Origin: Pilaira anomala
Taxonomy: Eukaryota; Mucoromycota; Mucoromycetes; Mucorales; Mucoraceae
DNA: 64,000 nt
Assembly: GCA_025716855.1 (NCBI GenBank)
Contig: JAIXMQ010000004.1
Span: 496,001 to 560,000, forward strand
Direction of reading: 5' to 3'
Shown: positions 26,436 to 60,926 of the stretch, piece by piece
Layout: every line of letters starts with the position of its first letter
Numbering within the stretch: the stretch's first letter is position 1
Notes under the pieces: model-generated
What the model saw: only the letters and a program-made list of their open reading frames with translations
Databases searched by the model: none
What the model was told of the DNA's origin: nothing
Position numbers and translations under genes: made by a program

Positions 26436-26466
<31 letters not shown>

Positions 26467-27724
26467 CTCGACCACGACCTCTACCTCTACCACGTACTAC
26501 TACTGCAGTTTGTTGAAGTAACGGTTGTGTTGAAGAAGTATATAAAGATTTATCTACAATGTATTCTTTTGGCGTATGTTTATCACAATAAGCTTTCAAG
26601 ATAACACCTTCAGTTTGAGAAGTATGAGAATTCATTTTCATACATAATTTAGCAGTTTTAGCACAAGTAACATGAAATGCGGAGAAACAATGTTTGTTAT
26701 CGCATTGAATACAGGCACCTTGTTTTTTGCGACAGATGAAACAAGTTAACTTCCATCTACTTTTTGGTATATTATTAATCATATCAATCGGTTCCATATA
26801 GATCGTATTACTGACACCCACTTCTGGAATCCAAATGGCACAAAGTAAATGTCCCCATTGATTTGTATTGGTTTGTTTAAATGCTCCACCTTCATTTGGA
26901 CAGAATAAACAGGAAACTGGATATTCGGGTGAAATCATACATTTTCTACAGAGCCATTGACCTTCGGGTATATAAGGTATTCCATAACAGTCTTGATGTA
27001 CTGCTACATTACATCCATCACAAAATACGATTGCGTTACTATTCTCTACTTCTGTATCATCACATACTGCACATGCTGAATCTTCTGGTAGAATAATTTG
27101 TTCTGATATTGATTTAGGCGCATCTTTAATCTATACACAATAATAAAAAATTAAAAAAAAAAAAAAAAAAAAAAAAAGACAAACAATTTGACATATTTTA
27201 TATACCAGACAAAACCATTCTTTCTCTAGTTTATCCATGATACATTCAAACAAGTAAGGTGATATATCACCTAATTTTTCTTTTCTTCGTTCTTTATTAT
27301 ATAATTGAAGCCATGCTCTATCTTGTTCATCCATATCATATTCTACTGTATCATATAACTCTGTATCAGATGGTTCAATATAGTGAATATAATGATTTTC
27401 TGGTCTTTTAAAAGGTTGATATAAATCATGGTGTAAAGCTAATAAATTGTTTTGTTGATGATTTTGTTCTTCTTCCTCTTCTTCACCTTCTTCTGTTTCT
27501 TGAACACATTTTGAATAATTTACTTTAGGTAAACGAGATAGTTCTACACCTTGTGTAGTATCGCGTAATAGAGGACTATCACACCTGATAATAGGTAAAG
27601 GTTGTGTGATATCAATATTATATGTTGCTGTACTAGAAGATTCCTGAACTTCGTTTTGTTGTAACGCTGTAATGTTGTTCCTTTTAGGTCTGCCTCTTCT
27701 GTTAGTTGTCTTTGTACCAGACAT
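24158..27724 (-). CDS. BRPF/Nto1-type chromatin scaffold (EPC-like, PHD-knuckle-PHD, bromodomain, PWWP)
   Basis: Five exons (27724-27206, 27130-26177, 26112-26053, 25995-24461, 24389-24158) give 1099 residues. A polycomb-enhancer-like segment (about 115-150) contains YIEPSDTELYDTVEYDMDEQ. The first PHD starts at CAVCDDTEVENSNAIVFCDG and runs to PEGQWLCRKC. A zinc knuckle and extended PHD follow (CLFCPNEGGAFKQT, WGHLLCAIWIPEV, CIQC, HVTCA). A bromodomain lies at about 553-652 (PLEYVIRPILNQFM to YNATDTRYYKVA). A PWWP domain near 967-1045 begins RGEIVWARVTGYPSHPAKF, crosses the last intron and ends at HRWGWV. This is the full animal BRPF1 order, longer than yeast Nto1, which lacks the last domains. 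Such proteins hold MYST acetyltransferase complexes on H3. An RGRGRG/poly-Ser linker sits inside exon 2. Confidence 0.9.
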
Positions 27725-35454: not shown

Positions 35455-38400
35455 ATGCCTTACACACCTTACACGTTGCAGACTATACTTTCTTCTCCGC
35501 GTATAGAGGAGCCTATACAACCTTCCACTAGCTCCTCTTTCTTTTCAAGAAGACCAACTTCGCCTTCTTCCAATGACGGAGTTACTTCTCCTATTATTCG
35601 ATACTCATCTACTAACCGTATAGATTCAGTTGGTGCCTGGGGTAAATTTTTATAATAATAATAAAAAAAAAAGAATAAACTATTGACATTATACGTGTAG
35701 ATAGTGATTTATACTGTGGCACTTCTGATGGTGTAGTTTTACATTATTCCCTCGAAGACCATGCGTCACCAACAGAAGTAAGCATAAAAAAAAAGTCAAA
35801 CACCTTTTTTTTTTTTTTTTTTTTTTTTTTTATTCATCTTTATTATACTAGACTTTTTCAACTCATTTAGAAAACACGATCCATTTAGGACTTGGAAAAC
35901 GAAGTGTAGAACGTATTTTATTAATACCTCAAGTATCAAAAGCTGTTGTTCTTTGTGGTAAAAAAAAATAAAAAATCGAAAAAATACAACATAATATGCT
36001 AATACTTTTCGTGATATATAATAGATTCTACACTTTCATTTTTTTCTTTACCCTTTTTCGATCCAATTCCAACTTCCTTTATACAACCTATTAAAGGCGT
36101 CTCTTGTTTCTCTCATGATATAGGTGAGGAAGGTAGAATTGGTGAAGATGGTACTGTAGAATTATCTGTAGTGAAAAGAAGAGCAATTCAAATATATAAA
36201 ATTGGTGAATCCATGCATTTAAAAAAGGTACATTTTCCCCTTTAAAGGTACAGAAAAAAAAATCTTACATATAAAATAGGAAATACCACTAGTGGATGGT
36301 GCCATTACATTAACTAGACACGGTAAAATTCTATGCTTGGCAGATAATCAAATTTATAAAATCATCAATTTGCAACAATCATCCGTGACGAATTTGATCC
36401 CGATACCTCAAGTCGCTTATAGTCCACCTAGTCTATTAGGATCCGGTACACACCCATGTCCACTTGTAGCAGTAGTGAAACAAGACGAATTTTTAATGGT
36501 GAGCGGTACTTCCGATAGTCAAATCGGTATCTTTGTAAATGGAAATGGAGATGCTATTCGAGGTACTTTAGAATGGTCCAGTTTTCCTAAAGCATTATGT
36601 GTCGAATTCCCATACGTCGCAGCACTTTTACGTAACAATTCAATTGAAATCCATAATATCTTGGATCAAAAACTATTACAAAAGATTCCGTTAGACCCAG
36701 CCATGGAAGCAAAAGGCATGACTTTTGGTCATGGTATTAAAGTATGGATGGATATATTAGCCAAGAAATTAAGAAGACATACTTGGCACCAAGAAGAAGA
36801 TGCAGAATTAGCGAGTGTATTAGAAAGAGAAATCAGTCGATACTCTACAGCCGCTGCTCGAATTTTAATCTATGGACATGATACTGTATTAGCTCAAGTC
36901 ACAACTCCTTTAGTAGTCCAGGTAGATAAATTATTAGAGAATAGTTTGATAGAGGAAGCAATGGAATTAGCTGAACAAGCTAGAAATACAATGTCAAATG
37001 ATAATAATGTATATATGGAGAGGCTAAGATCTGAATTGAATTATACTTATCAGAAATCGGGTTTATTGCTCTTAAAAGAAACTTTATTTGACGACGCCTT
37101 TGCTTTATTATCAAAAGGTGATATGGATCCTCGTGTGGTGATTCATTTATTTGAAGGCTTAGCACAGCCTAAATGGTTAAAGGAATACCCTGCCATCTTA
37201 TTATTTAATGGTATTCGAATCCTGATAGAAGAATTAGGTTCAATTAAAAATATCGTGAATCAGCAAGAGTCGGTATCATCCAATGAAACAGATGAAACTG
37301 CATCAGCGAATGGTGCACCAGAAATGCGTCGTGTTTTGTTATTGAATGCAAGAGAAGCCCTAAGTAAATACTTGTTGTTGGAGCGAGGAAAACGAAAGGA
37401 TCGGTTAGGTCAAAATGATACGATATGTAAAGTCATTGACACCTGCTTGTTAAAGATTTACATGTCGCAAAAAAATGATGATGCAATTTATAGACTTTTA
37501 AAACAGCCCAACGATTGTAGTGTGGAAGATTGTGCTAAAGCTTTATCCAAGTCAAAGGTATTTATATTTTTATTATTTTTTTTTTATAAATATGCAGTAC
37601 TAATTTTATTACTCTTTAGAAATATTATGCATTATCTATCATGTACGAATCAAAACACATGTATGAAAAAGCGTTAGATATATGGACAAAGTAAGTTTAA
37701 TATATTGTATCAAGATCACTTTTGTTAATGAATACATATAAAATAGAATTTATTCGGGCGAACTTCCAGATCCTGAATTTAAAGATGGATTAACGAGAAT
37801 TAAACGCTTATTGTTAAGAGACATTCAATCAGAAGAACTTCCTTTATCAGTAATTATGCATTATGCATGGTGGTTGACACATCAAAGTCCTGCTGATGGT
37901 GTGGAAGTATTTACTCGATCACCTCGCACAAAAGATATGGACCCCGATGAAATTCTTGAAAAGCTAGAAAATTATAGTAATGATGGTGTTCGTACTTATC
38001 TTGAATACCTTGTTCTAACACAACATAGCGAAAGAGCTGAATATCATACAAGGCTTGCTTGTAGTTATGTACGTGATGTTCAAAGAGAAATTGAAAGTAA
38101 TCATCAATTAAAACAAATGCAAAATTTAGTGGATCAATTTAAAAAGCATGTAAATCCAATTAAAATGATTGAAAACTCAAAAGAAGAATTAAATCAAGTT
38201 ACTTTTGTTGGTTTTCTTGGATCACAAAAATCTCCTTTAATCAGACTTCGATTATTATTGATTCGATTACTTCAAAGCTCTCAACTCTATTCGCCTGAAA
38301 CTTTATTAACTGTACTAACAAAGGCTGGTCCTTTAGATATAGAAAAGGCAATTGTTTTTGGAAGAGTAAGTTAAAATAAAATAGTCCACATGTTTATGTA

Positions 38401-43343: not shown

Positions 43344-43345
43344 TA

Positions 43346-44909
43346 CTGGATTTCCCACTGTTTTTGGGACACGGTTTGAAAATTTTTGGGAGTAAATGTC
43401 AGAGTTGTTTGAACAAAATCAGAATTATTTTTTGAATAAAAAATAAATATGTCCACTTTTGATATCGATATGTCTGAACTCTGTTTAGAAGACCAAACAA
43501 CGGAAGTATATGTTAGTCTTATGTAGATGATGAGAATTGAGTAAGATGGTATAAGCGCAATGGAATTAGATGAGGAAGTGAACGAAACCGTTGGCATTAC
43601 AGCTGAGACGGAACAATTTGAATCTGAACAAGAAGAGGAAGAGGAAAACAGTTCGCAAGAAAAAAAACCAGACCTACTGGGGATCATAAAAAAAGAATTG
43701 GAAAAAAAAAAAGCTCGCTTACAGAAGCTACAGCGATCTTCAAATTGTCGGCTTTCTTGAGCAGCTTACCGAAGGTGTAAGTACTATGGAAGCAGCCAAC
43801 TGTTTTGGCATATCAAGAAGCTCAGCATATAGATTTAGAAGCCAATGGCTCTCATCTGGTAGGGGTAGTTCGTAAGAAGAGAGGGTCAGCTGAAGGTAGT
43901 ATGTCATCCTTAAAACAGGAACATACAGACTTTATTATCAACTATATTGAAAAGTTTGCTACAGCAACTATTGAGCACATAAAAGACGAGCTAGTAAAAG
44001 AATTTAAGGATTTAGTAATTAGTAAATCTGGACTTGAGCGCCATATGAAGACCCATTGTTGTGCGCTATCCTTAAAGCGATTAGAAAAAATACCAGCCAA
44101 GCGTAACGATGAAGACACTATACGACAACGAAGAGAACGTGTCGAAACGTTTATTGCTGACAAGGATACGGGTTTTGAGCGCAACTGTGTGTTTTTAGAT
44201 GAAGCAGGCTTCAATTTACATATAGTGAGAAATAGAGGATGGTCTGCAAAAGGAAAGCCTGCTAAGACCATTGTACCTACGAACAGAGGTACATCCATAA
44301 CGATTTAGGAGCCATATCTTCTGCTGGGGTTATAATATATCGTTAAGAAAACCCACTCCGGCGACTAATGCTAAAAAGAGAAAGCTCGACGGAAAGGCTG
44401 TCAAAATCACGAAAGGTACCAATACCAGCCATTACTTAGCTTACCTTTGCAACGTCATGGATGTTTTAGATAAAAATAAGATGCAAGGTTTTTACCTAGT
44501 AATAGATAATGCCCCAATCCATGGACCAAGAGGTAAGGTTATGAATGATTATATTGTCAGTAGGGGTTATAAGTGTGTTTACTTGCCACCATACTCCCCA
44601 TTTTTGAATCCTATCGAAGAGTTTTGGTCTAAGGTTAAGGCAGGTATCAAAAGATCTCCTATCGATGGCAAGGATACTCTCACACCAAGAATATTAGAAT
44701 CATGTTCTAAAGTAACTTTGAGTGATTGTAGAGGATGGATAAGACATTCTGTATCTTTTTTTTCCCGTTGCTTAGCCGAAGAGCAGATGCTATAGTTTTA
44801 TTTTAAAAATAATAAATATTCCAAAAATTTTAAATAATTGTTCAAAAAATAATTCTGATTTTGTTCAAACAACTCTGACATTTAGTCCCAAAAACAGTGG
44901 GAAATCCAG
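43346..44909 (+). mobile_element. Tc1/mariner element, left copy
   Basis: A 1564-bp element runs from CTGGATTTCCCACTG at the left to its inverse at the right, with TA on each outer side (43344-43345 and 44910-44911). The two TIRs share CTGGATTTCCCACTGTTTTT and then a common block up to about 80-100 bp, except that the left end has about 24 extra bases (CGGTTTGAAAATTTTTGG-like). The transposase frame inside is broken. Its twin is 56347-57910. Confidence 0.9.
43560..44795 (+). pseudogene. broken mariner transposase, left copy
   Basis: Three fragments in different frames make one DDE transposase: 43560-43760 (acidic N-terminus), 43805-44308 and 44457-44795. A helix-turn-helix-like part (STMEAANCFGISRSSAYRFR) spans 43780-43850 with a frame change after it. 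The middle part has FLDEAGFNLHIVRNRGWSAK with the first Asp. The third has LVIDNAPIHGPRG with the second Asp and YLPPYSPFLNPIEEFWSKVK with the final Glu. Frameshifts near 43860, 44308 and 44335 disrupt the gene. No plausible introns explain them, so it is a dead copy. Confidence 0.85.
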
Positions 44910-44911
44910 TA

Positions 44912-45612
44912 CTCTTTTATACTGGCCCTTTTATAATTAAATCACAAACGGTGTTACCTCAACCTTTTTTCTTTATTATCTTTTTTATTTACAAACTTAG
45001 GTGGTACAACAACCACTTTTTCTTATAAATACCCCCTTCATTTTGTAGTTAAATAAACTTTAAGTTAGATTTTACTAGAAACTTCAAATAAGTAATTAGG
45101 TTATCCTTATATTATCTCTGATATTTTGAACTGTCAACCCCATTTTGTATATAATACCTCTTCGCTTTGATCTTCTGAATTCACTTTTGGTAATTCGTTA
45201 CCTGTCTTATATTTGATTATATTCTTTTTATTTGTATTGAAAACTATTGTATTTCCTACGCTCCCATTAAAAACGGATTATTATCCCCTTGTTATTCTAT
45301 AACGACGTCGATAATTCTTTTTAGAGTCTAGCTGTATCTCCCACTTTTTCAGCGAATAATATATCTAAGTCTTTTTAAATAAGTTAACAGCTATATAGTC
45401 TGGTGCTCACATTTTACTTTATTAATTGTTTGTTATATAACTTTTAATAACCTCTTCACTTGTATACTGCTATAAACTATTAGACGTATCAACGGTTTAC
45501 CATTTTCCCAACTCCCACCATTTTTTTTTTTTTTTTACAAGAATTATACTTTTATTTTATTGTTTTTTTACAAAAATTATACTTTTATTTTAATTTTTTT
45601 GAATATCATACT
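44912..45612. other. non-coding stretch in the left arm
   Basis: 700 bp between the mariner copy and the poly-T run (45613-45667). It holds a short tandem duplication (AAAATTATACTTTTATTTTA-like, near 45535-45600). No gene is seen. It is mirrored at 55641-56344. Confidence 0.5.
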
Positions 45613-45667
<55 letters not shown>

Positions 45668-45670
<3 letters not shown>

Positions 45671-46398
45671 TTCAAATTGAAGATTATTTAAATAATTAGA
45701 GGTATCATCGCTACAATAGGCTTCAAATTCAGTAATTTGATGAATATCTGAAGCATTGGAATGATTAGAGACGGTGGTATCAATATCAAGACCAGCTTCA
45801 ACGTTAGAAGTTTGAAGACCATCAGAAGCATTAGAATTATTAGAAGCATTAGAATTATTAGAGTCATAGAGTTATTAGAGTATTGGAGGTATTGAAGTAC
45901 TGAGTACTGAGTATTGAAGTATTGGAGGTATTGGAGGTATCCTTATCAAGACCAGCTTCAGCTTTAGCAGTACGAAGACTCTCTAAAGTGTCATGGAAGA
46001 CTTCATCATCAAGATCAGCGTCATCTGTCAAGCTAAGGGAAGAGGTAGCATCATTATAATTTTCAGTTACTATAAGTAAAAGTGTATCAGTATAAATGAA
46101 CTTGTATTTAAAAAAAAAAATTACCTTCAGTATGAAGACTGTCTGGATGAATGTTCTCTTTGTGATCTGTACCACCAGAGAAGGTTAGCTTTGATTTGGT
46201 ATTACTAGTGTTTTGCACCTCATTATGAGTTATTGATAAATAACCTAAGGGTCCAGACTTGAGACGTTTGGTATTAAGAGGAATTTCACCTTCAAACTTT
46301 CGCTTTTTTGATGAGGATGATGAGCCAATAGCTGAAGAAGAAGATGCAGAGGAAGAAGATGTATTATAGGCAGTAGATGAGGAGGAGGATGAAGTCAA
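45668..46398 (-). pseudogene. truncated second copy of the multi-SIM gene, left arm
   Basis: This stretch repeats the 3' part of exon 1 (poly-Ser, KKRKFEGEIPLNTKRLKSGP, HKENIHPDSLHTEG), intron 1 and exon 2 of the multi-SIM gene lying just inside it. It has small changes (for example LSITHNE instead of LPITHNE). It ends at the start of intron 2, where the A-run has grown to about 55. The VNTR part (around 45870-45945) is scrambled compared with the right-arm twin, so the frame is broken here. It lacks a start codon and is not expected to be expressed by itself. Confidence 0.7.
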
Positions 46399-48275
46399 GT
46401 AAAGACAAAGTTACAGGTCTATTGTCTTCAAAACCAGTAGGGAAAGCCTGTACACCATCATCATCACTATCCTCTGTTAAATCAATTATTGAGCCATGTG
46501 TGTTAGGCATACTTGAGTTGTTGTATGGATATGGACGAGAAACAACTATGGGACTATCATCATCACTATCCTCTGTTAAATCAATTATTGAGCCATGTGT
46601 GTTAGGCATACTTGAGTTGTTGTATGGATATGGACGAGAAGCAACTATGAGACTATCATCATCGTCATCATCATCAAGGATTTCAATAACTGGAACATTA
46701 GGAGGTGGCGTAAAGTTACTTTGAGCGGGTTCAATAGGTGATATAGTAGTATCACTAAGTATTATTACTTCAGGAGATTCAGGAGTGACAAGTTCAGTAT
46801 TTTCAAATTCAGTAGTTTCAGACTCCGTAGTAGTAACAGGTTCGATAGTAGTCTGAAGACTGGCTGAAGCGGCGCCAAGGTAATCTGTATCATAATCATC
46901 AGAATCAGAAAAGATAGCTTCATTAAAGAGGTCAATTATGGGGCTTTGATTACTTTCTGAAGCATTGGAATCAGTAGAGATATCAGTAGTAGTTGGAATT
47001 TCATTAGCTAAATAGTAATTTTAGTAAATTTGTTACTATGTGTCTTTTTTTTTTTTACCTTCAAATTGAAGATTATTTAAATCATTAGAGGTATCATCGC
47101 TACAATAGGCTTCAAATTCAGTAATTTGATGAATATCTGAAGCATTGGAATGATTAGAGACGGTGGTATCAATATCAAGACCAGCTTCAACGTTAGAAGT
47201 TTGAAGACCATCAGAAGCATTAGAATTATTAGAAGCATTAGAATTATTAGAATCATTAGAATTATTAGAGTCATTAGAGTTATTAGAGGTATTGGAGGTA
47301 TTGGAGGTATTGGAGGTATTGGAGGTATTGGAGGTATTGGAGGTATCCTTATCAAGACCAGCTTCAGCTTTAGCAGTACGAAGACTCTCTAAAGTGTCAT
47401 GGAAGACTTCATCATCAAGATCAGCGTCATCTGTCAAGCTAAGGGAAGAGGTAGCATCATTATAATTTTCAGTCACTATAAGTAAAAGTGTATCAGTATA
47501 AATGAACTTGTATTTAAAAAAAAAAATTACCTTCAGTATGAAGACTGTCTGGATGAATGTTCTCTTTGTGATCTGTACCACCAGAGAAGGTTAACTTTGA
47601 TTTGGTATTACTAGTGTTTTGCACCTCATTATGAGTTATTGGTAAATAACCTAAGGGTCCAGACTTGAGACGTTTGGTATTAAGAGGAATTTCACCTTCA
47701 AACTTTCGCTTTTTTGATGATGATGATGAGCCAATAGCTGAAGAAGAAGATGCAGAGGAAGAAGATGTATTATATGCAGAAGAGGAGGAGGAGGAGGATG
47801 AAGAAGAGTTGTTATTATTAGTATGTACAGGAGAATAAGAGTGATGATCACTTTTCATATGTTTATATGAAGATAAAATGGTATCTTCCTCTTCTCTTTC
47901 TTTTCGTTTGCCTAATATGGTAGTATTTGGTCCATTTGAAGAAGAAGAGGAGAAATTATTATTTTGCGCAGTAATATTTTGCTGTTGTTGTTGTGCTTGA
48001 CGTCTTTGAGCAATTATGCGTTGCTTTCGAAGATCTTCCATATCAACACCTAACATAGACCATTTGGATGGGTTTTCAAGCCCTGTTTCAACGAAAAAAG
48101 CATAAGTGCTGTCATCAAGGACCATGTCTTTATTTTGTTGTTGTTCCAAGTCATGAAGATCAATTATTGAACTTGTACTGTCTGTGGAATTGGGTCCAAC
48201 ACCATGAGAAGTAAAGTCTTCTCTTTTACCTGTGTTATTATTATTATCTTTGGTATAATATCTTGTTCTGGACAT
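46364..48275 (-). CDS. low-complexity protein with several SUMO-interacting-like motifs (left copy, intact)
   Basis: Three exons (48275-47531, 47475-47059, 47007-46364) give 601 residues. Exon 1 is Asn/Gln/Ser-rich with a short ordered part (STYAFFVETGLENPSKWSML) and a basic KKRKFEGEIPLNTKRL stretch, probably a nuclear signal. Exon 2 has an Asn/Thr/Ser VNTR. Exon 3 holds hydrophobic-acidic cores of SIM type: PIIDLF (~410), VIIL, VIEILDDDD (~494), and two copies of SIIDLTEDSDDD (~527 and 560); a weaker one, SIIDLHDLE, is near 37. The 3' end runs into the duplicated poly-Ser segment in another frame and stops after IYCL. No known family. The motifs suggest binding to SUMO or SUMOylated proteins. 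Confidence 0.7.
46457..46654 (-). repeat. two tandem 99-bp units carrying SIM-like motifs, left arm
   Basis: The coding segment SRPYPYNNSSMPNTHG followed by SIIDLTEDSDDD occurs twice back to back (46654-46556 and 46555-46457), with two or three changed residues (SLIVA versus SPIVV). It is mirrored at 54587-54784. Confidence 0.85.
47286..47347 (-). repeat. 9-bp VNTR encoding Ser-Asn-Thr, left arm
   Basis: About six tandem AATACCTCC-type units in exon 2 of the multi-SIM gene, followed by looser Asn-Ser/Asn-Asp units. The right arm has the same number of units in its main copy (53895-53955). Confidence 0.85.
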
Positions 48276-49086
48276 GATTGGGTAAAATAAAAAAATAAAA
48301 TATGGCAAAGAAGAAGAAGAAAAGAGAAATGAAAAGAAAGAAAAAAAAAGGGCGTTTTGTTTACTTGAAGTAAAAGTCACAAATGATGACGCCCGTATTC
48401 GCTCACCCAGAAAAGTTAAATAAGAGAAATAAAAAGCAATTGAAGAGATCAAGTTTTAGCAGCAGCACTCTTTGGTGAATATATGTTGGCTTGTTAATAC
48501 GAAGTAATGACATGAAGGAACTAACATCGGGGTTAATTCTATTTTATCTCCTTTTTGTTATATATATGCATCTTGTGTATTCAAAGGACCGTGCTTTTTT
48601 TTTGATAGAATACAGAAAAGCTTTTGAAAGTAGATGGTATAACTATCCTCATTTGATTTGCTGTACGATATATAGTACTTTACAGATATTCATATGCTTA
48701 TTCTCTTGTTTACACAAATTAAACATGATGATACCTAAATCTGACAACTAGTATTAAAGAAGACGTTTAAGATACAAGTATATGATATATACATTGTGTG
48801 TATATAAAGGTATTCTCATTGTCCAATACAAGATTATGTCATGAAGACAACTAGATTGCCATAGTAACTATTTACAAAAAGATCATCTCTTTCAAAACAA
48901 GTGACAACCTAGACTTTTCGTACTACATAAAAAAAAAGTTCATTTATAACTTTAATGCAGTAAAAAAATAAAAATAAAAAAATGTATGCAAGTTACATAT
49001 TTGATCCATCCAAGGAAGGTGTTCTTTAACTCTCATGTAAAAGATAAAAGACTAGTTATTGGATGTAGAAAATATTTTTTATTAAA
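48276..49086. other. intergenic stretch in the left arm
   Basis: 811 bp between the multi-SIM gene start and a truncated gene fragment. It likely includes the promoter of the multi-SIM gene. A plus-strand 86-codon frame inside (48491-48751) has no motif. It is mirrored in the right arm. Confidence 0.45.
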
Positions 49087-49356
49087 TTAGGTTTTTTTGG
49101 ATAGAGGTTGGTAGATATTATTTAGTAAATGATCCAAATCTTTAGGCAAAGGTAATTCAGCATCTTGATTAACTAATCTATAATTTTCAAGACGTTCCAC
49201 TTGATGACATAATCCAGACAAGTACAAATTACGTTCTTTTTCTGGAGAGAAACTATATCTTTGTCTGTTATAAGCGGGACGATCCATAGATTTGACCAGC
49301 AAGTCGGCTGTATCTTTAAGCTCTTGTATTAATAATTGTTCATATGATAACCATTC
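49087..49356 (-). pseudogene. 3' exon of a severed unknown gene, left arm
   Basis: An exon of 89 codons starts after a good acceptor at 49357-49358 and stops at 49087. Its product has an amphipathic helix (LLIQELKDTADLLVKSM), then PAYNRQRYSFSPEKERN and LPKDLDHLLNNIYQPL. The expected upstream exons are missing because a mariner end lies 94 bp upstream. The fragment is identical in both arms. I do not recognise the family. Confidence 0.6.
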
Positions 49357-49451
49357 CTAAATAAGAAACACATGCAAATTGATTTATTTCATGCAAAAGT
49401 GTGATTTGTAACACGTATCCTTTTTAAATTCCTTCCGTGATTTTACCACTA

Positions 49452-49536
49452 CTGGATTTCCCACTCGGTTTGAAAATTTTTGGGACTAAATGTCAGAGTT
49501 GTTTGAACAAAATCAGAATTATTTTTTGAACAATTA
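49452..49536 (+). mobile_element. solo mariner end, left arm
   Basis: 85 bp match the TIR of the mariner copy at 43346, starting TA then CTGGATTTCCCACT, and stop at AACAATTA where the Harbinger-like element begins. The rest of the mariner element is absent. Confidence 0.8.
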
Positions 49537-49903
49537 GGGATGTTCAGACCAATTTGTGCTAAAATCTGACAAACTTACGTTAGCCAATAAAATTAATTTG
49601 GGTCTGAACACCCCAAATGCAAAAAAAAATTGAATTTTAGTCCAATTTTTTAGTTGACAGATGATGTAAATCTTTCATTATGCAATTAGTTTCTTAAGTG
49701 AATAAACTTTTTTTTCTGTTCCTACTCTTCTTTATCTTATATACTTTGTATTTAACTATATCTTAAATCTTTATAAAAATGGCCAACCAACGTCCCATCC
49801 AAAAAAAAAAAAAAAAAAAAAAAAAAACTAATGCTATTACTGCTATGGAAAAAAACAGACGTGATAAAGGAAAGAATGGACAAATCGGGGTAGTTCCTAA
49901 AAA
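49537..49903 (+). mobile_element. half of a Harbinger-like element, left arm
   Basis: The stretch starts with GGGATGTTCAGACC, has an inverted match GGTCTGAACACCCC 50 bp further (49601-49614), and encodes the first part of a basic protein from ATG 49779 (MANQRPIQ, poly-Lys, TNAITAMEKNRRDKGKNG). It stops at 49903, two bases before the GGGG of the next element. GGG-starting TIRs and a preceding TTA agree with the PIF/Harbinger superfamily; this is inferred. Confidence 0.6.
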
Positions 49904-49914
49904 TAGGGGTGTTC

Positions 49915-50769
49915 TGTGATGTACGTTCTTTATTGAAGTAGGAAAAATGTGAGCACACGCTGTAAGGTTGCGAACCAAGATTTAAATAATAAGTAGAAAG
50001 GAGGAACTTAGAGGAAGGAAATGTAGAGGTTGTCAAAATTTATCTTTAATTTACGAAGAAATAAAGAATTCAATTGAGCAGAAAAAAAAAGATGTATTCT
50101 TATATAATATAGGAATGGTTCTCTTTTAAAATATGTTGAGCTTAGGTCTAAAGGTCACTAACAATACACGAAGTATATATAATGTATAATAGACGAAGAT
50201 GATCAACGGAACACAAGTATTGATTATCAATTCTTATAAAGATAGATATGTATCACTCGCTAATTGTTTAAGGCCCACCAATATATATCTCTTATGAATA
50301 AGAGTTCTTTATTGACGAGATGACTTAAGATAAAAAAAGTATGGTTCTCTATAGCTTTAAAGCCTAAAGATGTATGCTTTTTATTTATGTAGATTGTGGG
50401 ATCAGATATTATTCTTAAAAGAAAGAAATGTTTCTAAAACCACTGAAATACGATACGTTTAGACTTATTCTCTTAGTGTATTCTAAGAGAAAGATCACTA
50501 AAACGGTTTCTTTTGATATGACAAAAGAAGGGGAAAAAGGAAAAGAAAAAAAAAAGAAATAATAAAAAAAAAAGAAAAGTTTACACTGCCTTAGCAAGTG
50601 TAGAAAAAAAAAGGAATAAATAAGATTTTGATTGAGATTCGACTCAAGAACTTTATTGAAAGGTGAAAAAAAGGGGAGTATTTATAAAGAAAAAGAAATA
50701 AGGTTTGACGATAGAAGAAAAGATAGGAAACAGGTGATTTTACCAAAACAAAAAAAGGCAGTCGTTACA
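49915..50769 (-). mobile_element. solo LTR, about 855 bp
   Basis: Ends are TGTGATG and GTTACA, i.e. TG...CA. The four bases GTTC occur just before (49911-49914) and just after (50770-50773), as a short target-site duplication that splits the GGGGTGTTCAGACC TIR. Read on the minus strand, TATAAATA lies near 50686-50679 and AATAAA near 50657-50652, in promoter and polyadenylation order, so the minus orientation is preferred. No internal retrotransposon genes are present. Confidence 0.6.
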
Positions 50770-50957
50770 GTTCAGACCAATTTGTGCTAAAATCGTGCAA
50801 AATTTAAAATAATCTGATTGGTTAAAAAAAATTGTCAGATTTTTATAATTGAACACCTAAACCGCAAAACAAATCTTTGTTTAATTTGCATTTTGGTACA
50901 AATTATGCGTCATGTCAAAAAAAATATGTCATTATAACGACTAGATTACTTTCTGCT

Positions 50958-51003
50958 TTTCTCTTTTCTCTTTTCTCTTTTCTCTTTTCTCTTTTCTCTT
51001 TTA
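50958..51003 (+). repeat. (CTCTTTT)n microsatellite
   Basis: About six tandem 7-bp units upstream of the plus-strand frame of the Harbinger-like element. Confidence 0.85.
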
Positions 51004-51062
51004 TATCTGTGTATAATTTTCTCTTTTATAATATAATAACCAACAAACAGCAATATCGTACA

Positions 51063-51209
51063 ATGCCTAGAGTTTTCCCAAAATCCAACTTGATAAAGTC
51101 CTTGAAGAAAAGTGGAAAAGAAACAAAGGTGCTTGTCAAATCCTACATGGAAACATTGCAACGTCCTGTTACTGTAATTTTAAGCGTCGTGCACTATACA
51201 AGATATTGA
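51063..51209 (+). pseudogene. truncated transposon frame, MPRVFPK type
   Basis: 48 codons starting MPRVFPKSNLIKSLKKSGKE and ending early in HYTRY. Short, basic, placed about 290 bp inside the element end. Probably the remnant N-terminus of one of the two transposon proteins. Confidence 0.45.
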
Positions 51210-51245
51210 TAAATGTATGTAAAGATCACATTAAGAATCATTTCA

Positions 51246-51464
51246 CTAGAACTCGAAATCCACCAAGTAATCCGTAGGAGATTGCTGGTTACGCTCGCCG
51301 ACGGGTTTATCCCAACTAATGTATGTTTTGCTAACATTGTTTTTAGGAACTACCCCGATTTGTCCATTCTTTCCTTTATCACGTCTGTTTTTTTCCATAG
51401 CAGTAATAGCATTAGTTTTTTTTTTTTTTTTTTTTTTTTTTTGGATGGGACGTTGGTTGGCCAT
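51246..51464 (-). pseudogene. truncated transposon frame, MANQRPIQ type
   Basis: 72 codons with a poly-Lys stretch, then MEKNRRDKGKNGQIGVVPKN and ISWDKPVGERNQQSPTDYLV, ending DFEF. The pattern of a Trp/Asp-rich strand followed by a helix could be the start of a Myb/SANT-like DNA-binding part. The left-arm twin is cut after VVPKN. Confidence 0.45.
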
Positions 51465-51706
51465 TTTTATAAAGATTTAAGATATAGTTAAATACAAAGT
51501 ATATAAGATAAAGAAGAGTAGGAACAGAAAAAAAAGTTTATTCACTTAAGAAACTAATTGCATAATGAAAGATTTACATCATCTGTCAACTAAAAAATTG
51601 GACTAAAATTCAATTTTTTTTTGCATTTGGGGTGTTCAGACCCAAATTAATTTTATTGGCTAACGTAAGTTTGTCAGATTTTAGCACAAATTGGTCTGAA
51701 CATCCC

Positions 51707-51791
51707 TAATTGTTCAAAAAATAATTCTGATTTTGTTCAAACAACTCTGACATTTAGTCCCAAAAATTTTCAAACCGAGTGGGAAATCCAG
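51707..51791 (-). mobile_element. solo mariner end, right arm
   Basis: Reverse complement of 49452-49536; ends GGAAATCCAG then TA. Confidence 0.8.
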
Positions 51792-51886
51792 TAGTGGTAA
51801 AATCACGGAAGGAATTTAAAAAGGATACGTGTTACAAATCACACTTTTGCATGAAATAAATCAATTTGCATGTGTTTCTTATTTAG

Positions 51887-52156
51887 GAATGGTTATCATA
51901 TGAACAATTATTAATACAAGAGCTTAAAGATACAGCCGACTTGCTGGTCAAATCTATGGATCGTCCCGCTTATAACAGACAAAGATATAGTTTCTCTCCA
52001 GAAAAAGAACGTAATTTGTACTTGTCTGGATTATGTCATCAAGTGGAACGTCTTGAAAATTATAGATTAGTTAATCAAGATGCTGAATTACCTTTGCCTA
52101 AAGATTTGGATCATTTACTAAATAATATCTACCAACCTCTATCCAAAAAAACCTAA
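51887..52156 (+). pseudogene. 3' exon of a severed unknown gene, right arm
   Basis: Identical product to 49087-49356: starts after a TTTAG acceptor at 51884-51886, stops at 52156. Upstream exons are cut off by the mariner end at 51707-51791. Confidence 0.6.
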
Positions 52157-52966
52157 TTTAATAAAAAATATTTTCTACATCCAATAACTAGTCTTTTATC
52201 TTTTACATGAGAGTTAAAGAACACCTTCCTTGGATGGATCAAATATGTAACTTGCATACATTTTTTTATTTTTATTTTTTTACTGCATTAAAGTTATAAA
52301 TGAACTTTTTTTTTATGTAGTACGAAAAGTCTAGGTTGTCACTTGTTTTGAAAGAGATGATCTTTTTGTAAATAGTTACTATGGCAATCTAGTTGTCTTC
52401 ATGACATAATCTTGTATTGGACAATGAGAATACCTTTATATACACACAATGTATATATCATATACTTGTATCTTAAACGTCTTCTTTAATACTAGTTGTC
52501 AGATTTAGGTATCATCATGTTTAATTTGTGTAAACAAGAGAATAAGCATATGAATATCTGTAAAGTACTATATATCGTACAGCAAATCAAATGAGGATAG
52601 TTATACCATCTACTTTCAAAAGCTTTTCTGTATTCTATCAAAAAAAAAGCACGGTCCTTTGAATACACAAGATGCATATATATAACAAAAAGGAGATAAA
52701 ATAGAATTAACCCCGATGTTAGTTCCTTCATGTCATTACTTCGTATTAACAAGCCAACATATATTCACCAAAGAGTGCTGCTGCTAAAACTTGATCTCTT
52801 CAATTGCTTTTTATTTCTCTTATTTAACTTTTCTGGGTGAGCGAATACGGGCGTCATCATTTGTGACTTTTACTTCAAGTAAACAAAACGCCCTTTTTTT
52901 TCTTTCTTTTCATTTCTCTTTTCTTCTTCTTCTTTGCCATATTTTATTTTTTTATTTTACCCAATC
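52157..52966. other. intergenic stretch in the right arm
   Basis: Mirror of 48276-49086, with homopolymer differences (an 8-T run here against 9 A on the left). Likely holds the promoter of the right multi-SIM copy. Confidence 0.45.
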
Positions 52967-53894
52967 ATGTCCAGAACAAGATATTATACCAAAGATAATA
53001 ATAATAACACAGGTAAAGAGAAGACTTTACTTCTCATGGTGTTGGACCCAATTCCACAGACAGTACAAGTTCAATAATTGATCTTCATGACTTGGAACAA
53101 CAACAAAATAAAGACATGGTCCTTGATGACAGCACTTATGCTTTTTTCGTTGAAACAGGGCTTGAAAACCCATCCAAATGGTCTATGTTAGGTGTTGATA
53201 TGGAAGATCTTCGAAAGCAACGCATAATTGCTCAAAGACGTCAAGCACAACAACAACAGCAAAATATTACTGCGCAAAATAATAATTTCTCCTCTTCTTC
53301 TTCAAATGGACCAAATACTACCATATTAGGCAAACGAAAAGAAAGAGAAGAGGAAGATACCATTTTATCTTCATATAAACATATGAAAAGTGATCATCAC
53401 TCTTATTCTCCTGTACATACTAATAATAACAACTCTTCTTCATCCTCCTCCTCCTCCTCTTCTGCATATAATACATCTTCTTCCTCTGCATCTTCTTCTT
53501 CAGCTATTGGCTCATCATCATCATCAAAAAAGCGAAAGTTTGAAGGTGAAATTCCTCTTAATACCAAACGTCTCAAGTCTGGACCCTTAGGTTATTTACC
53601 AATAACTCATAATGAGGTGCAAAACACTAGTAATACCAAATCAAAGTTAACCTTCTCTGGTGGTACAGATCACAAAGAGAACATTCATCCAGACAGTCTT
53701 CATACTGAAGGTAATTTTTTTTTTTAAATACAAGTTCATTTATACTGATACACTTTTACTTATAGTGACTGAAAATTATAATGATGCTACCTCTTCCCTT
53801 AGCTTGACAGATGACGCTGATCTTGATGATGAAGTCTTCCATGACACTTTAGAGAGTCTTCGTACTGCTAAAGCTGAAGCTGGTCTTGATAAGG

Positions 53895-53955
53895 ATACCT
53901 CCAATACCTCCAATACCTCCAATACCTCCAATACCTCCAATACCTCCAATACCTC
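53895..53955 (+). repeat. 9-bp VNTR encoding Ser-Asn-Thr, right arm
   Basis: About six AATACCTCC units in exon 2 of the right multi-SIM copy, same count as on the left. Confidence 0.85.
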
Positions 53956-54586
53956 TAATAACTCTAATGACTCTAATAATTCTAATGATTCTAATAATTC
54001 TAATGCTTCTAATAATTCTAATGCTTCTGATGGTCTTCAAACTTCTAACGTTGAAGCTGGTCTTGATATTGATACCACCGTCTCTAATCATTCCAATGCT
54101 TCAGATATTCATCAAATTACTGAATTTGAAGCCTATTGTAGCGATGATACCTCTAATGATTTAAATAATCTTCAATTTGAAGGTAAAAAAAAAAAAGACA
54201 CATAGTAACAAATTTACTAAAATTACTATTTAGCTAATGAAATTCCAACTACTACTGATATCTCTACTGATTCCAATGCTTCAGAAAGTAATCAAAGCCC
54301 CATAATTGACCTCTTTAATGAAGCTATCTTTTCTGATTCTGATGATTATGATACAGATTACCTTGGCGCCGCTTCAGCCAGTCTTCAGACTACTATCGAA
54401 CCTGTTACTACTACGGAGTCTGAAACTACTGAATTTGAAAATACTGAACTTGTCACTCCTGAATCTCCTGAAGTAATAATACTTAGTGATACTACTATAT
54501 CACCTATTGAACCCGCTCAAAGTAACTTTACGCCACCTCCTAATGTTCCAGTTATTGAAATCCTTGATGATGATGACGATGATGAT

Positions 54587-54784
54587 AGTCTCATAGTTGC
54601 TTCTCGTCCATATCCATACAACAACTCAAGTATGCCTAACACACATGGCTCAATAATTGATTTAACAGAGGATAGTGATGATGATAGTCCCATAGTTGTT
54701 TCTCGTCCATATCCATACAACAACTCAAGTATGCCTAACACACATGGCTCAATAATTGATTTAACAGAGGATAGTGATGATGAT
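54587..54784 (+). repeat. two tandem 99-bp units carrying SIM-like motifs, right arm
   Basis: Units 54587-54685 and 54686-54784, each ending SIIDLTEDSDDD. Mirror of 46457-46654. Confidence 0.85.
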
Positions 54785-54842
54785 GGTGTACAGGCTTTCC
54801 CTACTGGTTTTGAAGACAATAGACCTGTAACTTTGTCTTTAC

Positions 54843-55577
54843 TTGACTTCATCCTCCTCCTCATCTACTGCCTATAATACATCTTCTTCCTCTGCATCTT
54901 CTTCTTCAGCTATTGGCTCATCATCCTCATCAAAAAAGCGAAAGTTTGAAGGTGAAATTCCTCTTAATACCAAACGTCTCAAGTCTGGACCCTTAGGTTA
55001 TTTATCAATAACTCATAATGAGGTGCAAAACACTAGTAATACCAAATCAAAGCTAACCTTCTCTGGTGGTACAGATCACAAAGAGAACATTCATCCAGAC
55101 AGTCTTCATACTGAAGGTAATTTTTTTTTTAAATACAAGTTCATTTATACTGATACACTTTTACTTATAGTAACTGAAAATTATAATGATGCTACCTCTT
55201 CCCTTAGCTTGACAGATGACGCTGATCTTGATGATGAAGTCTTCCATGACACTTTAGAGAGTCTTCGTACTGCTAAAGCTGAAGCTGGTCTTGATAAGGA
55301 TACCTCCAATACCTCCAATACCTTCAATACCTCCAGTACCTCCAGTACCTTCAATACCTCCAATACCTCTAATAACTCTAATGACTCTAATAATTCTAAT
55401 GCTTCTAATAATTCTAATGCTTCTGATGGTCTTCAAACTTCTAACGTTGAAGCTGGTCTTGATATTGATACCACCGTCTCTAATCATTCCAATGCTTCAG
55501 ATATTCATCAAATTACTGAATTTGAAGCCTATTGTAGCGATGATACCTCTAATTATTTAAATAATCTTCAATTTGAA

Positions 55578-55640
<63 letters not shown>
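54843..55640 (+). pseudogene. truncated second copy of the multi-SIM gene, right arm
   Basis: Direct repeat of about 53449-54182, shifted by roughly 1.4 kb: 3' part of exon 1, intron 1, exon 2 and then a poly-A of about 60 at the former intron 2 donor. The Asn/Thr VNTR is altered (SNTFNTSSTSSTFNTSNTSN). Unlike its left twin, the frame through exon 2 is open here. There is no proper start codon and no exon 3. Confidence 0.7.
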
Positions 55641-55641
<1 letters not shown>

Positions 55642-56344
55642 AGTATGATATTCAAAAAAATTAAAATAAAAGTATAATTTTTGTAAAAAAAACAATAAAA
55701 TAAAAGTATAATTCTTGTAAAAAAAAAAAAAAAATGGTGGGAGTTGGGAAAATGGTAAACCGTTGATACGTCTAATAGTTTATAGCAGTATACAAGTGAA
55801 GAGGTTATTAAAAGTTATATAACAAACAATTAATAAAGTAAAATGTGAGCACCAGACTATATAGCTGTTAACTTATTTAAAAAGACTTAGATATATTATT
55901 CGCTGAAAAAGTGGGAGATACAGCTAGACTCTAAAAAGAATTATCGACGTCGTTATAGAATAACAAGGGGATAATAATCCGTTTTTAATGGGAGCGTAGG
56001 AAATACAATAGTTTTCAATACAAATAAAAAGAATATAATCAAATATAAGACAGGTAACGAATTACCAAAAGTGAATTCAGAAGATCAAAGCGAAGAGGTA
56101 TTATATACAAAATGGGGTTGACAGTTCAAAATATCAGAGATAATATAAGGATAACCTAATTACTTATTTGAAGTTTCTAGTAAAATCTAACTTAAAGTTT
56201 ATTTAACTACAAAAATGAAGGGGGTATTTATAAGAAAAAGTGGTTGTTGTACCACCTAAGTTTGTAAATAAAAAAGATAATAAAGAAAAAAGGTTGAGGT
56301 AACACCGTTTGTGATTTAATTATAAAAGGGCCAGTATAAAAGAG
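55641..56344. other. non-coding stretch in the right arm
   Basis: Mirror of 44912-45612; about 700 bp with a short tandem duplication next to the poly-A. No gene seen. Confidence 0.5.
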
Positions 56345-56346
56345 TA

Positions 56347-57910
56347 CTGGATTTCCCACTGTTTTTGGGACTAAATGTCAGAGTTGTTTGAACAAAATCA
56401 GAATTATTTTTTGAACAATTATTTAAAATTTTTGGAATATTTATTATTTTTAAAATAAAACTATAGCATCTGCTCTTCGGCTAAGCAACGGGAAAAAAAA
56501 GATACAGAATGTCTTATCCATCCTCTACAATCACTCAAAGTTACTTTAGAACATGATTCTAATATTCTTGGTGTGAGAGTATCCTTGCCATCGATAGGAG
56601 ATCTTTTGATACCTGCCTTAACCTTAGACCAAAACTCTTCGATAGGATTCAAAAATGGGGAGTATGGTGGCAAGTAAACACACTTATAACCCCTACTGAC
56701 AATATAATCATTCATAACCTTACCTCTTGGTCCATGGATTGGGGCATTATCTATTACTAGGTAAAAACCTTGCATCTTATTTTTATCTAAAACATCCATG
56801 ACGTTGCAAAGGTAAGCTAAGTAATGGCTGGTATTGGTACCTTTCGTGATTTTGACAGCCTTTCCGTCGAGCTTTCTCTTTTTAGCATTAGTCGCCGGAG
56901 TGGGTTTTCTTAACGATATATTATAACCCCAGCAGAAGATATGGCTCCTAAATCGTTATGGATGTACCTCTGTTCGTAGGTACAATGGTCTTAGCAGGCT
57001 TTCCTTTTGCAGACCATCCTCTATTTCTCACTATATGTAAATTGAAGCCTGCTTCATCTAAAAACACACAGTTGCGCTCAAAACCCGTATCCTTGTCAGC
57101 AATAAACGTTTCGACACGTTCTCTTCGTTGTCGTATAGTGTCTTCATCGTTACGCTTGGCTGGTATTTTTTCTAATCGCTTTAAGGATAGCGCACAACAA
57201 TGGGTCTTCATATGGCGCTCAAGTCCAGATTTACTAATTACTAAATCCTTAAATTCTTTTACTAGCTCGTCTTTTATGTGCTCAATAGTTGCTGTAGCAA
57301 ACTTTTCAATATAGTTGATAATAAAGTCTGTATGTTCCTGTTTTAAGGATGACATACTACCTTCAGCTGACCCTCTCTTCTTACGAACTACCCCTACCAG
57401 ATGAGAGCCATTGGCTTCTAAATCTATATGCTGAGCTTCTTGATATGCCAAAACAGTTGGCTGCTTCCATAGTACTTACACCTTCGGTAAGCTGCTCAAG
57501 AAAGCCGACAATTTGAAGATCGCTGTAGCTTCTGTAAGCGAGCTTTTTTTTTTTCCAATTCTTTTTTTATGATCCCCAGTAGGTCTGGTTTTTTTTCTTG
57601 CGAACTGTTTTCCTCTTCCTCTTCTTGTTCAGATTCAAATTGTTCCGTCTCAGCTGTAATGCCAACGGTTTCGTTCACTTCCTCATCTAATTCCATTGCG
57701 CTTATACCATCTTACTCAATTCTCATCATCTACATAAGACTAACATATACTTCCGTTGTTTGGTCTTCTAAACAGAGTTCAGACATATCGATATCAAAAG
57801 TGGACATATTTATTTTTTATTCAAAAAATAATTCTGATTTTGTTCAAACAACTCTGACATTTACTCCCAAAAATTTTCAAACCGTGTCCCAAAAACAGTG
57901 GGAAATCCAG
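56347..57910 (-). mobile_element. Tc1/mariner element, right copy
   Basis: 1564 bp, the same length as the left copy, with TA at both outer sides (56345-56346, 57911-57912). It is the mirror image of 43346-44909. Confidence 0.9.
56461..57696 (-). pseudogene. broken mariner transposase, right copy
   Basis: Fragments 57696-57496, 57451-56948 and 56799-56461 encode the same peptides as the left copy, with frame breaks at equivalent places. Shared inactivating changes show the two copies descend from one already dead element. Confidence 0.85.
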
Positions 57911-57912
57911 TA

Positions 57913-60853: not shown

Positions 60854-60926
60854 AGCACCATGGCGCAGCAGGAAGCGCGCAGGGCTCATAACCCTGAGGT
60901 CGTCTGATCGAAACGGACTGGTGCTA
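60854..60926 (+). tRNA. initiator tRNA-Met (CAT)
   Basis: A 73-nt cloverleaf folds fully: acceptor AGCACCA (60854-60860) with TGGTGCT (60919-60925), D stem GCGC/GCGC, anticodon stem CAGGG/CCCTG around loop CTCATAA with anticodon CAT at 60887-60889, and T stem GTCTG/CGGAC. Eukaryotic initiator marks are present: A1-T72 as the first pair, three G-C pairs closing the anticodon loop (GGG/CCC) and an ATCGAAA T loop instead of TTCGAAA. No intron is present. This is the tRNA used only for translation start. Confidence 0.95.

What the first reader, a model, noticed from the sequence alone, without database searches (positions are those of the whole stretch)
43344..57912. A 14.57 kb palindrome whose outer ends are transposon TIRs flanked by TA
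Each arm is about 6.57 kb. The structure starts and ends exactly at CTGGATTTCC next to TA, so the entire palindrome has the ends of one giant mariner-like element and could in principle behave as a composite transposon. It carries two genes, two gene fragments and several other elements. Long perfect palindromes are unstable in most genomes, so either it is young or it is kept by arm-to-arm gene conversion. Real biology and assembly error both need to be weighed.
Basis: partly seen in the sequence, partly recalled or inferred. Interest (0 to 1): 0.88.

Follow-up and report, generated by a model that had tools for sequence, protein, structure and literature searches.

The report
Folded-back mariner composite transposon palindrome
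In a dung fungus, a jumping unit made of two mariner-type transposons around a copied host gene appears to have been broken and repaired by folding back on itself, leaving a 14.6 kb near-perfect palindrome that begins and ends exactly at transposon ends.

Summary
The palindrome is in the assembly as described: arms 43344-49903 and 51340-57912, no substitutions, 19 gap bases. Both outer ends fall on the TA beside a 1.56 kb Tc1/mariner-type element (A). The arm is not unique: A(+)-cargo-A(-) units, whole or partial, lie at nine other dispersed places in this genome (probably Pilaira anomala). Ordinary cargo, about 6.2 kb, is an SNF2-RING helicase gene plus the neighbour's last exon, derived from a tandem duplication still present without A at C215. 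One unit (C159) lies in a repeat whose other copies read straight through its TA, which fits insertion as one piece. The window palindrome derives from such a unit. Its centre is a fold-back inside a smaller transposon (X) inserted in A(-), not a transposase junction. Best explanation: break, fold-back priming, copying through cargo and A(+), then annealing to the oppositely oriented A(-). A second, older inverted duplication (C193:225369-232650, helicase inside, 8 substitutions) also ends exactly at mariner-type ends and TA on both sides. No reads were available.

The parts
43346..44909 (+). Element A(+), 1564 nt, Tc1/mariner-type, TIR CTGGATTTCC, flanked by TA (43344-43345, 44910-44911); transposase frame broken in this copy
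   Evidence: genome copies; DDE_3; TIRs; longest motif-bearing frames 175 and 164 aa
44912..49449 (+). Left copy of the cargo: solo LTR, helicase gene remnant (N-terminal part only, internally repeated), last exon of neighbour gene
   Evidence: (recurs, whole or in part, in 9 dispersed units and twice at C215)
44952..45491 (+). Solo LTR inside the cargo, TG..CA, 4-bp target duplication ACGG; related pairs with starts about 7.3 kb apart on C28 and C82
49087..49356 (-). Last exon of the neighbour gene (left arm); fuller gene at C215
   Evidence: tandem-duplication junction at 49359-49394
49452..49534 (-). Remnant (3' terminal 83 nt) of element A(-), at the TA where other units carry A(-)
   Evidence: 3'-type subterminal GAACAATTA, not 5'-type GAACTATC
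49537..49903 (-). X': inverted copy of the right 367 nt of element X, inside the left arm
49896..49914 (.). Fold-back junction: X' interior (CCTAAAAA) joined to TA plus the left end of X (GGGGTGTTC)
49906..51706 (+). Element X, TA-flanked mariner-type element of about 940 nt (TIR GGGGTGTTCAGACC), interrupted by Y
49915..50769 (+). Y: LTR-like insertion (TG..CA) in X, 4-bp target duplication GTTC
51709..51791 (+). Second copy of the A(-) remnant (right arm)
   Evidence: (arms I3)
51794..56344 (-). Right copy of the cargo (inverted); last exon of neighbour gene at 51887-52156 (+)
56347..57910 (-). A': inverted copy of A(+), identical to 43346-44909, flanked by TA
   Evidence: (p-distance 0.0)

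Best explanation
The palindrome is a rearranged copy of a dispersed composite transposon. Step 1 (read from sequence): at C215 a host segment with an SNF2-RING helicase gene and the last exon of its neighbour was tandemly duplicated. Step 2 (state seen, order inferred): elements A came to sit, in inverted orientation, at the same TA on both sides of one repeat unit. Step 3 (supported for C159, inferred for the rest): the A(+)-cargo-A(-) unit moved to new TA sites through its two outer TIRs. Step 4 (inferred): in the window copy X inserted in A(-), 83 nt from its inner end; a break came at or just outside X; the left end folded back on X with about 3 nt of pairing, primed synthesis, and copied X', the A(-) remnant, the cargo and A(+). 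Step 5 (inferred): the new copy of A(+), now in A(-) orientation, annealed with the rest of A(-) across the break and sealed the chromosome, so the palindrome ends exactly at an A end and keeps two unlike flanks.
For: Unit: in 8 of 8 dispersed units whose right end lies in the contig A(-) stands there (C113, C159, C171, C208, two on C1, two on C182); A(+) stands at the left end of C113, C159, C171, C184 and the window copy. A(-) copies share a 3' deletion (with a larger variant in one C182 copy), A(+) copies another. Origin: neighbour gene and A-free tandem units joined at the same TA at C215; the 36-nt duplication junction is exact in both window arms, at C215 and in 7 of 8 dispersed units with a right end (the eighth, one C1 copy, is truncated before it). 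One-piece insertion: joined flanks of C159 match 15 of 34 non-self places across the join; 5 of 5 fetched copies read through the TA. Transposase source: solo A copies 0.1-0.3% apart, 2 of 30 A loci with a 450-451 aa stop-to-stop frame. Fold-back: X' interior joined to TA plus the X left end, AAA shared with the inferred flank. The right outer element is identical to A(+). Age: no substitutions between arms against 5.1-7.6% to ten other cargo copies. Recurrence: C193 has an inverted duplication with a 2981-nt loop, likewise ending at oppositely oriented mariner-type ends. Yeast precedent: the most common outcome of foldback inversions joins oppositely oriented repeats on the two sides of the same break, most easily explained by annealing of the extended hairpin end; loops reach thousands of nt in strains with intact MRE11 and SAE2 (PMC7467729, passages).
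Against: Three nt of microhomology is weak and could be chance; the yeast stems were as short as 4 bp, not 3. The lost part of A(-) is inferred from other units. No base of the right outer element differs from A(+), so annealing was at its very end or later conversion erased the trace. The A(+) deletion lies between 6-nt direct repeats and also occurs at the 5' ends of two A(-) copies (C159, C208), so it is an imperfect marker. Two of two inverted duplications ending exactly at TIR and TA is also what mobile palindromes would show, and for C193 no resident partner element is known. Origin of the right flank was not testable. The turn lies right at the TA of X, which the model does not explain.
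Confidence: 0.5

Rival explanations
1. Fold-back made the palindrome elsewhere, and the finished palindrome, now with an intact TIR at both ends, moved here as one 14.57 kb element.
For: Outer TIRs inverted and next to TA; the simpler composite fits one-piece insertion; A was recently active; a second inverted duplication, C193:225369-232650, has mariner-type ends and TA on both sides too.
Against: One copy only; no empty site found for either palindrome, both having single-copy flanks.
Confidence: 0.22
2. Same fold-back, sealed by recombination or copying with an A elsewhere, so that the right flank comes from another place.
For: A copies lie on at least 16 contigs; in a yeast system duplications ended and translocations joined at delta elements or PAU genes (PMC10622511, section 11).
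Against: The oppositely oriented A(-) across the same break is the nearest partner. Nothing here tests it.
Confidence: 0.12
3. Assembly error: a folded chimeric read or a wrong path through A copies duplicated one arm.
For: The arms differ only by homopolymer-type indels; amplification and missed adapters give false palindromes in long reads (PMC6218980, passages). No reads were available.
Against: 1436 nt of spacer separate the arms, unlike a simple missed-adapter read. Both flanks are unlike and without a second full copy. The arms have independent indel states. The C193 structure of the same type carries substitutions between its arms, so it is not a copy made by an assembler. Amplification chimeras with a loop are not excluded.
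Confidence: 0.09
4. Alternative transposition: A transposase acting on ends of separate or sister copies made the inverted duplication directly.
For: TIRs and TA at the outer ends; such rearrangements are known for maize Ac/Ds (titles and abstract starts only).
Against: The inner junction is inside X, with no A end there and no TA just before that point in any of 5 aligned X copies.
Confidence: 0.03
5. Two units lay head to head and arm-to-arm gene conversion made them identical.
For: Within C113 and C159 the two inverted A copies are closer to each other (1.4 and 1.5%) than to most other A copies.
Against: It would have to cover 6.56 kb without one substitution left and stop exactly at A; the X'/X geometry is that of one folded X.
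Confidence: 0.03

Closest known systems
Foldback inversions of Saccharomyces cerevisiae, first class of resolution (ura3-52/URA3; eLife 2020, PMC7467729, passages read)
   Same: Inverted duplication with a loop between the arms, short pairing at the turn, far end at an oppositely oriented repeat on the other side of the break.
   Different: There selected laboratory rearrangements, mostly in repair mutants; here a resident structure in a genome assembly, with transposons supplying the repeats and the fold-back site.
Pack-TYPE transposons formed by joint mobilisation of neighbouring insertions, including Os-Pack-Mariner cluster 217 (PMC8903248, passages and section 9 read)
   Same: Two related elements and the DNA between them treated as one unit through the outer TIRs; TA target for mariner types.
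   Different: The worked examples in that section carry gene pieces of 58-280 bp; here both flanking elements are about 1.5 kb and the cargo is about 6 kb with all the helicase domains.
Bacterial composite transposons (passage of PMC9977792; otherwise recalled)
   Same: Two copies of an element around cargo.
   Different: Eukaryote host, Tc1/mariner-type ends, cargo from a host tandem duplication.
Ac/Ds alternative transposition in maize and rice (search listing only; otherwise recalled)
   Same: Ends of separate elements used together to rearrange DNA.
   Different: There the junctions lie at transposon ends (recalled); the inner junction here does not.

Membership tests
Tc1/mariner (IS630-Tc1-mariner) element, for A | TA target duplication on both sides | tested here: met
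   single TA in the uninterrupted copies of the C159 site
Tc1/mariner (IS630-Tc1-mariner) element, for A | DDE transposase of Tc1 type | tested here: met
   DDE_3, E 5.9e-24, plus HTH matches below cut-off in solo copy L021; relatives named Tc1-like transposase in other Mucorales
Tc1/mariner (IS630-Tc1-mariner) element, for A | Terminal inverted repeats | tested here: met
Composite (Pack-type) DNA transposon, for A-cargo-A | Same unit with clean outer ends in several unlike places | tested here: met
   left ends in 5 unlike flanks (window included); right ends in 6 contexts; outer TIR of A(-) intact in 6 of 8 units; both A present in 3 of 9 dispersed units, two others running off their contigs
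Composite (Pack-type) DNA transposon, for A-cargo-A | Empty target site uninterrupted | tested here: met
   C159 only: 15 of 34 non-self matches cross the join, though the repeat ends about 69 nt to its right; 5 of 5 aligned copies uninterrupted. Other units not tested
Composite (Pack-type) DNA transposon, for A-cargo-A | Movement observed or excision products | not testable with these tools
   needs isolates or an assay
Composite (Pack-type) DNA transposon, for the whole palindrome | More than one copy, or an empty site | tested here: inconclusive
   one copy; flanks gave no empty site
Fold-back inverted duplication | Arms with a non-repeated loop and microhomology at the turn | tested here: met
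   loop 1436 nt; 3 nt shared, counted on an inferred flank
Fold-back inverted duplication | Far end at a repeat homologous to the copied arm | tested here: met
   far end is the outer end of A'
Fold-back inverted duplication | Ancestral one-arm state known | tested here: inconclusive
   ordinary units exist elsewhere, but this site before the event was not found. For C193 a one-arm relative exists at C160:456152-457644, 95%
Alternative transposition product | Junctions at transposon ends only | tested here: not met
   inner junction lies in the interior of X

The most novel reading that the evidence does not exclude
Fold-back repair is a birth route for gene-carrying mariner elements. A host gene next to a single transposon end is copied back in inverted orientation, so one TIR becomes two, and gene plus arms become a TIR-bounded palindrome that a transposase can move. 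The window palindrome (A ends) and C193:225369-232650 (X ends, host HMG-CoA-lyase-like and SNF2 helicase sequence inside) would be two independent products, both around related helicase genes. This would answer how such elements take up whole genes, and the selected helicase cargo may help them.
Probability: 0.2. Interest if true: 0.82.

Novelty: new variant of a known kind. Interest (0 to 1): 0.6.

Why it matters
If real, it is a natural and very young record of a repair route known mainly from yeast selection experiments, with each partner still readable. It shows how two mariner-type elements, a tandem duplication and a helicase gene became a dispersed unit in a Mucoromycete. With C193 as a second case it raises a testable question: do palindromes with transposon ends only end there by repair, or does fold-back create new gene-carrying elements?

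Tried and rejected
X self-insertion (X end attacking a TA inside X): rejected, none of 5 aligned X copies has a TA just before that point. A different A inserted at the inner TA of the window copy: considered because its TIR lacks the deletion of other A(-) copies; rejected for an undeleted ancestor with X inserted, since its subterminal sequence is of the 3' type. Empty site for the window palindrome: each flank searched apart, no answer. Empty site for C193: joined flanks found only themselves. Other palindromes: 74 held loci (294,384 bases, overlapping; window pieces hold one arm each) scanned, one hit, C193. Literature: one paper holds 'Pilaira anomala' and 'genome', each once, listing only. 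No fungal Tc1/mariner composite of this kind seen in the rows listed (14; 10; 0; 2; 1; 3), judged by titles and abstract starts except for the papers named as read; PMC3538342 (not opened) reports transduplication in the fungus Pyrenophora, so gene carriage by fungal transposons as such is not new. Nothing on such palindromes in Mucorales in the 10 rows shown of 191.
Full report
What was checked. The window lies in a 34.25 Mb, 225-contig genome at C160:496001-560000. A protein named Pilaira anomala, held from a contig of 858,838 bases, matches C149, which has the same length, at 99, 97, 90, 97 and 92% over its pieces at 140.5-143.5 kb. I take the organism to be Pilaira anomala (Mucoraceae). 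The arms align over 6576 columns with 0 mismatches and 19 gaps; the indels are in homopolymers or short repeats, the kind that long-read consensus can leave. How this assembly was sequenced is not known to me. With 20-nt seeds no other inverted repeat of 120 nt or more was found in the window.

The arm is a family. The cargo between the two A elements (44911-49451) gave 93 matches in the own genome, a lower bound. Grouped by place they are the two window arms, nine dispersed units (C113, C159, C171, C184, C208, two on C1, two on C182), two tandem units on C215, and shorter pieces, including related LTRs on C28, C68 and C82 and diverged helicase paralogues on C149, C160 and C193. A(-) stands at the right end of all eight dispersed units whose right end is in the contig; C184 runs off its contig. 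A(+) stands at the left end of C113, C159, C171 and C184. Both C182 and both C1 units lack it and begin at cargo positions 66, 138, 151 and about 568; C208 runs off its contig. The right outer TIR is intact in six of eight; in C113 its first 14 or so bases are changed and in C171 it is cut off. Flanks beyond the outer ends are unlike, except that C182 (twice) and C191 share a right flank and one C1 copy shares its right flank with C208, which look like segmental duplications. C191 keeps A and 17 nt of cargo.

Origin of the cargo. The ordinary cargo (6.2 kb in C113) codes for SNF2, RING and helicase C domains; the best named relatives are Mucorales SNF2 proteins, and names further down include Ris1 and RAD5; calling it Uls1/Rad5-type is my recall. 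C215 has two tandem units without A, and next to them a fuller neighbour gene: a 324-aa frame, then after an intron-like gap the 89-aa frame that lies at the right end of the units. The duplication joined this gap to an upstream point with CATG shared by both. The 36-nt junction is exact at C215, in both window arms and in 7 of 8 dispersed units with a right end. A stands at the TA about 80 bases from it. How two A elements came to equivalent TAs in opposite orientation is not known.

Movement as one piece. With the flanks of the C159 unit joined over one TA, the search gave 36 matches: 2 are the site itself, 15 run across the join to position 415-420, and 19 cover one side or simple sequence. 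Five of the 15 were fetched and all five read through the TA. The repeat ends about 69 nt right of the join, so support on that side is short. Replacement of a lone A by a composite through recombination is not excluded. Three solo A copies are 0.1-0.3% apart, and 2 of 30 A loci have a frame of 450-451 aa with both motifs.

Selection on the cargo. Of ten SNF2 stretches in nine loci, five gave an uninterrupted 320-codon match: C113, one C182, one C1, both at C215. The other five (C159, C171, one C182, one C1, C208) had stops, gaps or split matches and were left out. The ten pairs have dN/dS 0.08-0.24; the three pairs of dispersed copies alone have 0.18-0.24. This points to purifying selection in at least part of their history, but half the stretches look broken, gene conversion from host copies could mimic it, and leaving out broken ones biases it down. 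Matches in the window stop at residue 374 of the paralogue, before the SNF2 part.

Anatomy of the centre. From 49452: 83 nt of A of the 3' type, TA, X' (inverted copy of the last 367 nt of X), then TA and the left end of X, interrupted after 9 nt by Y, then the rest of X, TA, and the second 83-nt A piece. X is about 940 nt with TIR GGGGTGTTCAGACC; Y has TG..CA ends and a 4-bp target duplication. The left side of X should border A(-) sequence; the join to X' shares 3 nt with that inferred flank. No TA precedes the break point in 5 of 5 X copies. So the turn looks like a microhomology fold-back, not a transposase product.

Why the outer end is exact. The right outer element is identical to A(+). 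In an ordinary unit the other side of a break at X would hold the rest of A(-), in the orientation of this copy; annealing there closes the chromosome at an A end. In yeast the most common outcome of foldback inversions joins oppositely oriented repeats on the two sides of the same break, and loops of up to thousands of nt occur (PMC7467729, passages). Closure at dispersed repeats is the alternative (PMC10622511, abstract and section 11). A later move through the outer TIRs would give the same ends.

C193:225369-232650 (7278 nt between the TAs) has arms 225369-227529 and 230511-232650 around a 2981-nt loop. The arms match over 2054 columns with 7 substitutions and one 4-nt gap, with one more substitution and a poly-A length difference further out. 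Both outer ends are TA plus the X TIR. A 960-aa frame with SNF2, RING and helicase C domains runs from the loop into the right arm. The arm also exists once, 95% alike, at C160:456152-457644, where it continues into a gene with HMGL-like matches and no X or A end was found in the 1101 nt fetched on that side nor in the 1101 nt at 451900-453000. Parts of the arm also lie in an X-ended element of about 2.5 kb at C101:364687-367180 and beside X at C193:203.7-205.3 kb. Its flanks have no second copy. So two of the two inverted duplications that I know here end at mariner-type ends and TA, and both involve helicase copies. I came upon it because I was following helicase paralogues, so this is no unbiased count.

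Age. With 5.1-7.6% between the window cargo and ten other copies over about 3 kb, arms as old as the family would show over 300 substitutions; there are none. The palindrome is young, or its arms convert each other, or it is an artefact.

Known or new. Joint mobilisation of neighbouring elements with the DNA between is proposed and exemplified for plant Pack-TYPE elements (PMC8903248, section 9). The present unit fits that kind but carries a gene with all its domains between two elements of 1.5 kb. I found no such unit described for fungi; the library is open-access only.

Noticed in passing
L072-L074 (C193:217-241 kb), element 225369-232650: Second near-perfect inverted duplication, X-type mariner ends and TA on both sides, SNF2 helicase in the loop and right arm, 8 substitutions between arms; one-arm relative at C160:456 kb.
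   Followed up: partly
C101:364687-367180 and C193:203729-205328: X-ended elements that appear to carry a piece of host sequence shared with the C193 arm (HMG-CoA-lyase-like side): Pack-type behaviour of X.
   Followed up: no
L054, L016, L055 (C215:55.5-71 kb): A-free tandem duplication of an SNF2-RING helicase gene beside a fuller neighbour gene; one unit has the solo LTR, the other does not.
   Followed up: yes
L021, L022, L023 (C170 twice, C182:589 kb): Solo A copies 0.1-0.3% apart, two with a long transposase frame: A was active recently.
   Followed up: partly
C1:1-4 kb, C178:3 kb, C182:11 kb, C184, C191, C208, C215 end: Many A copies lie near contig ends, perhaps subtelomeric or assembly-breaking repeats.
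   Followed up: no
window 45614-45667 and 55581-55640: T/A run of 54 and 60 nt, one per arm, one of the few differences between arms.
   Followed up: no
window 60854-60926: tRNA gene (Rfam RF00005).
   Followed up: no
window 22085-22942, 24460-27130, 36280-37674: Ordinary host genes: fibrillarin; bromodomain and PHD-finger frames side by side; CNH/Vps39 protein.
   Followed up: no
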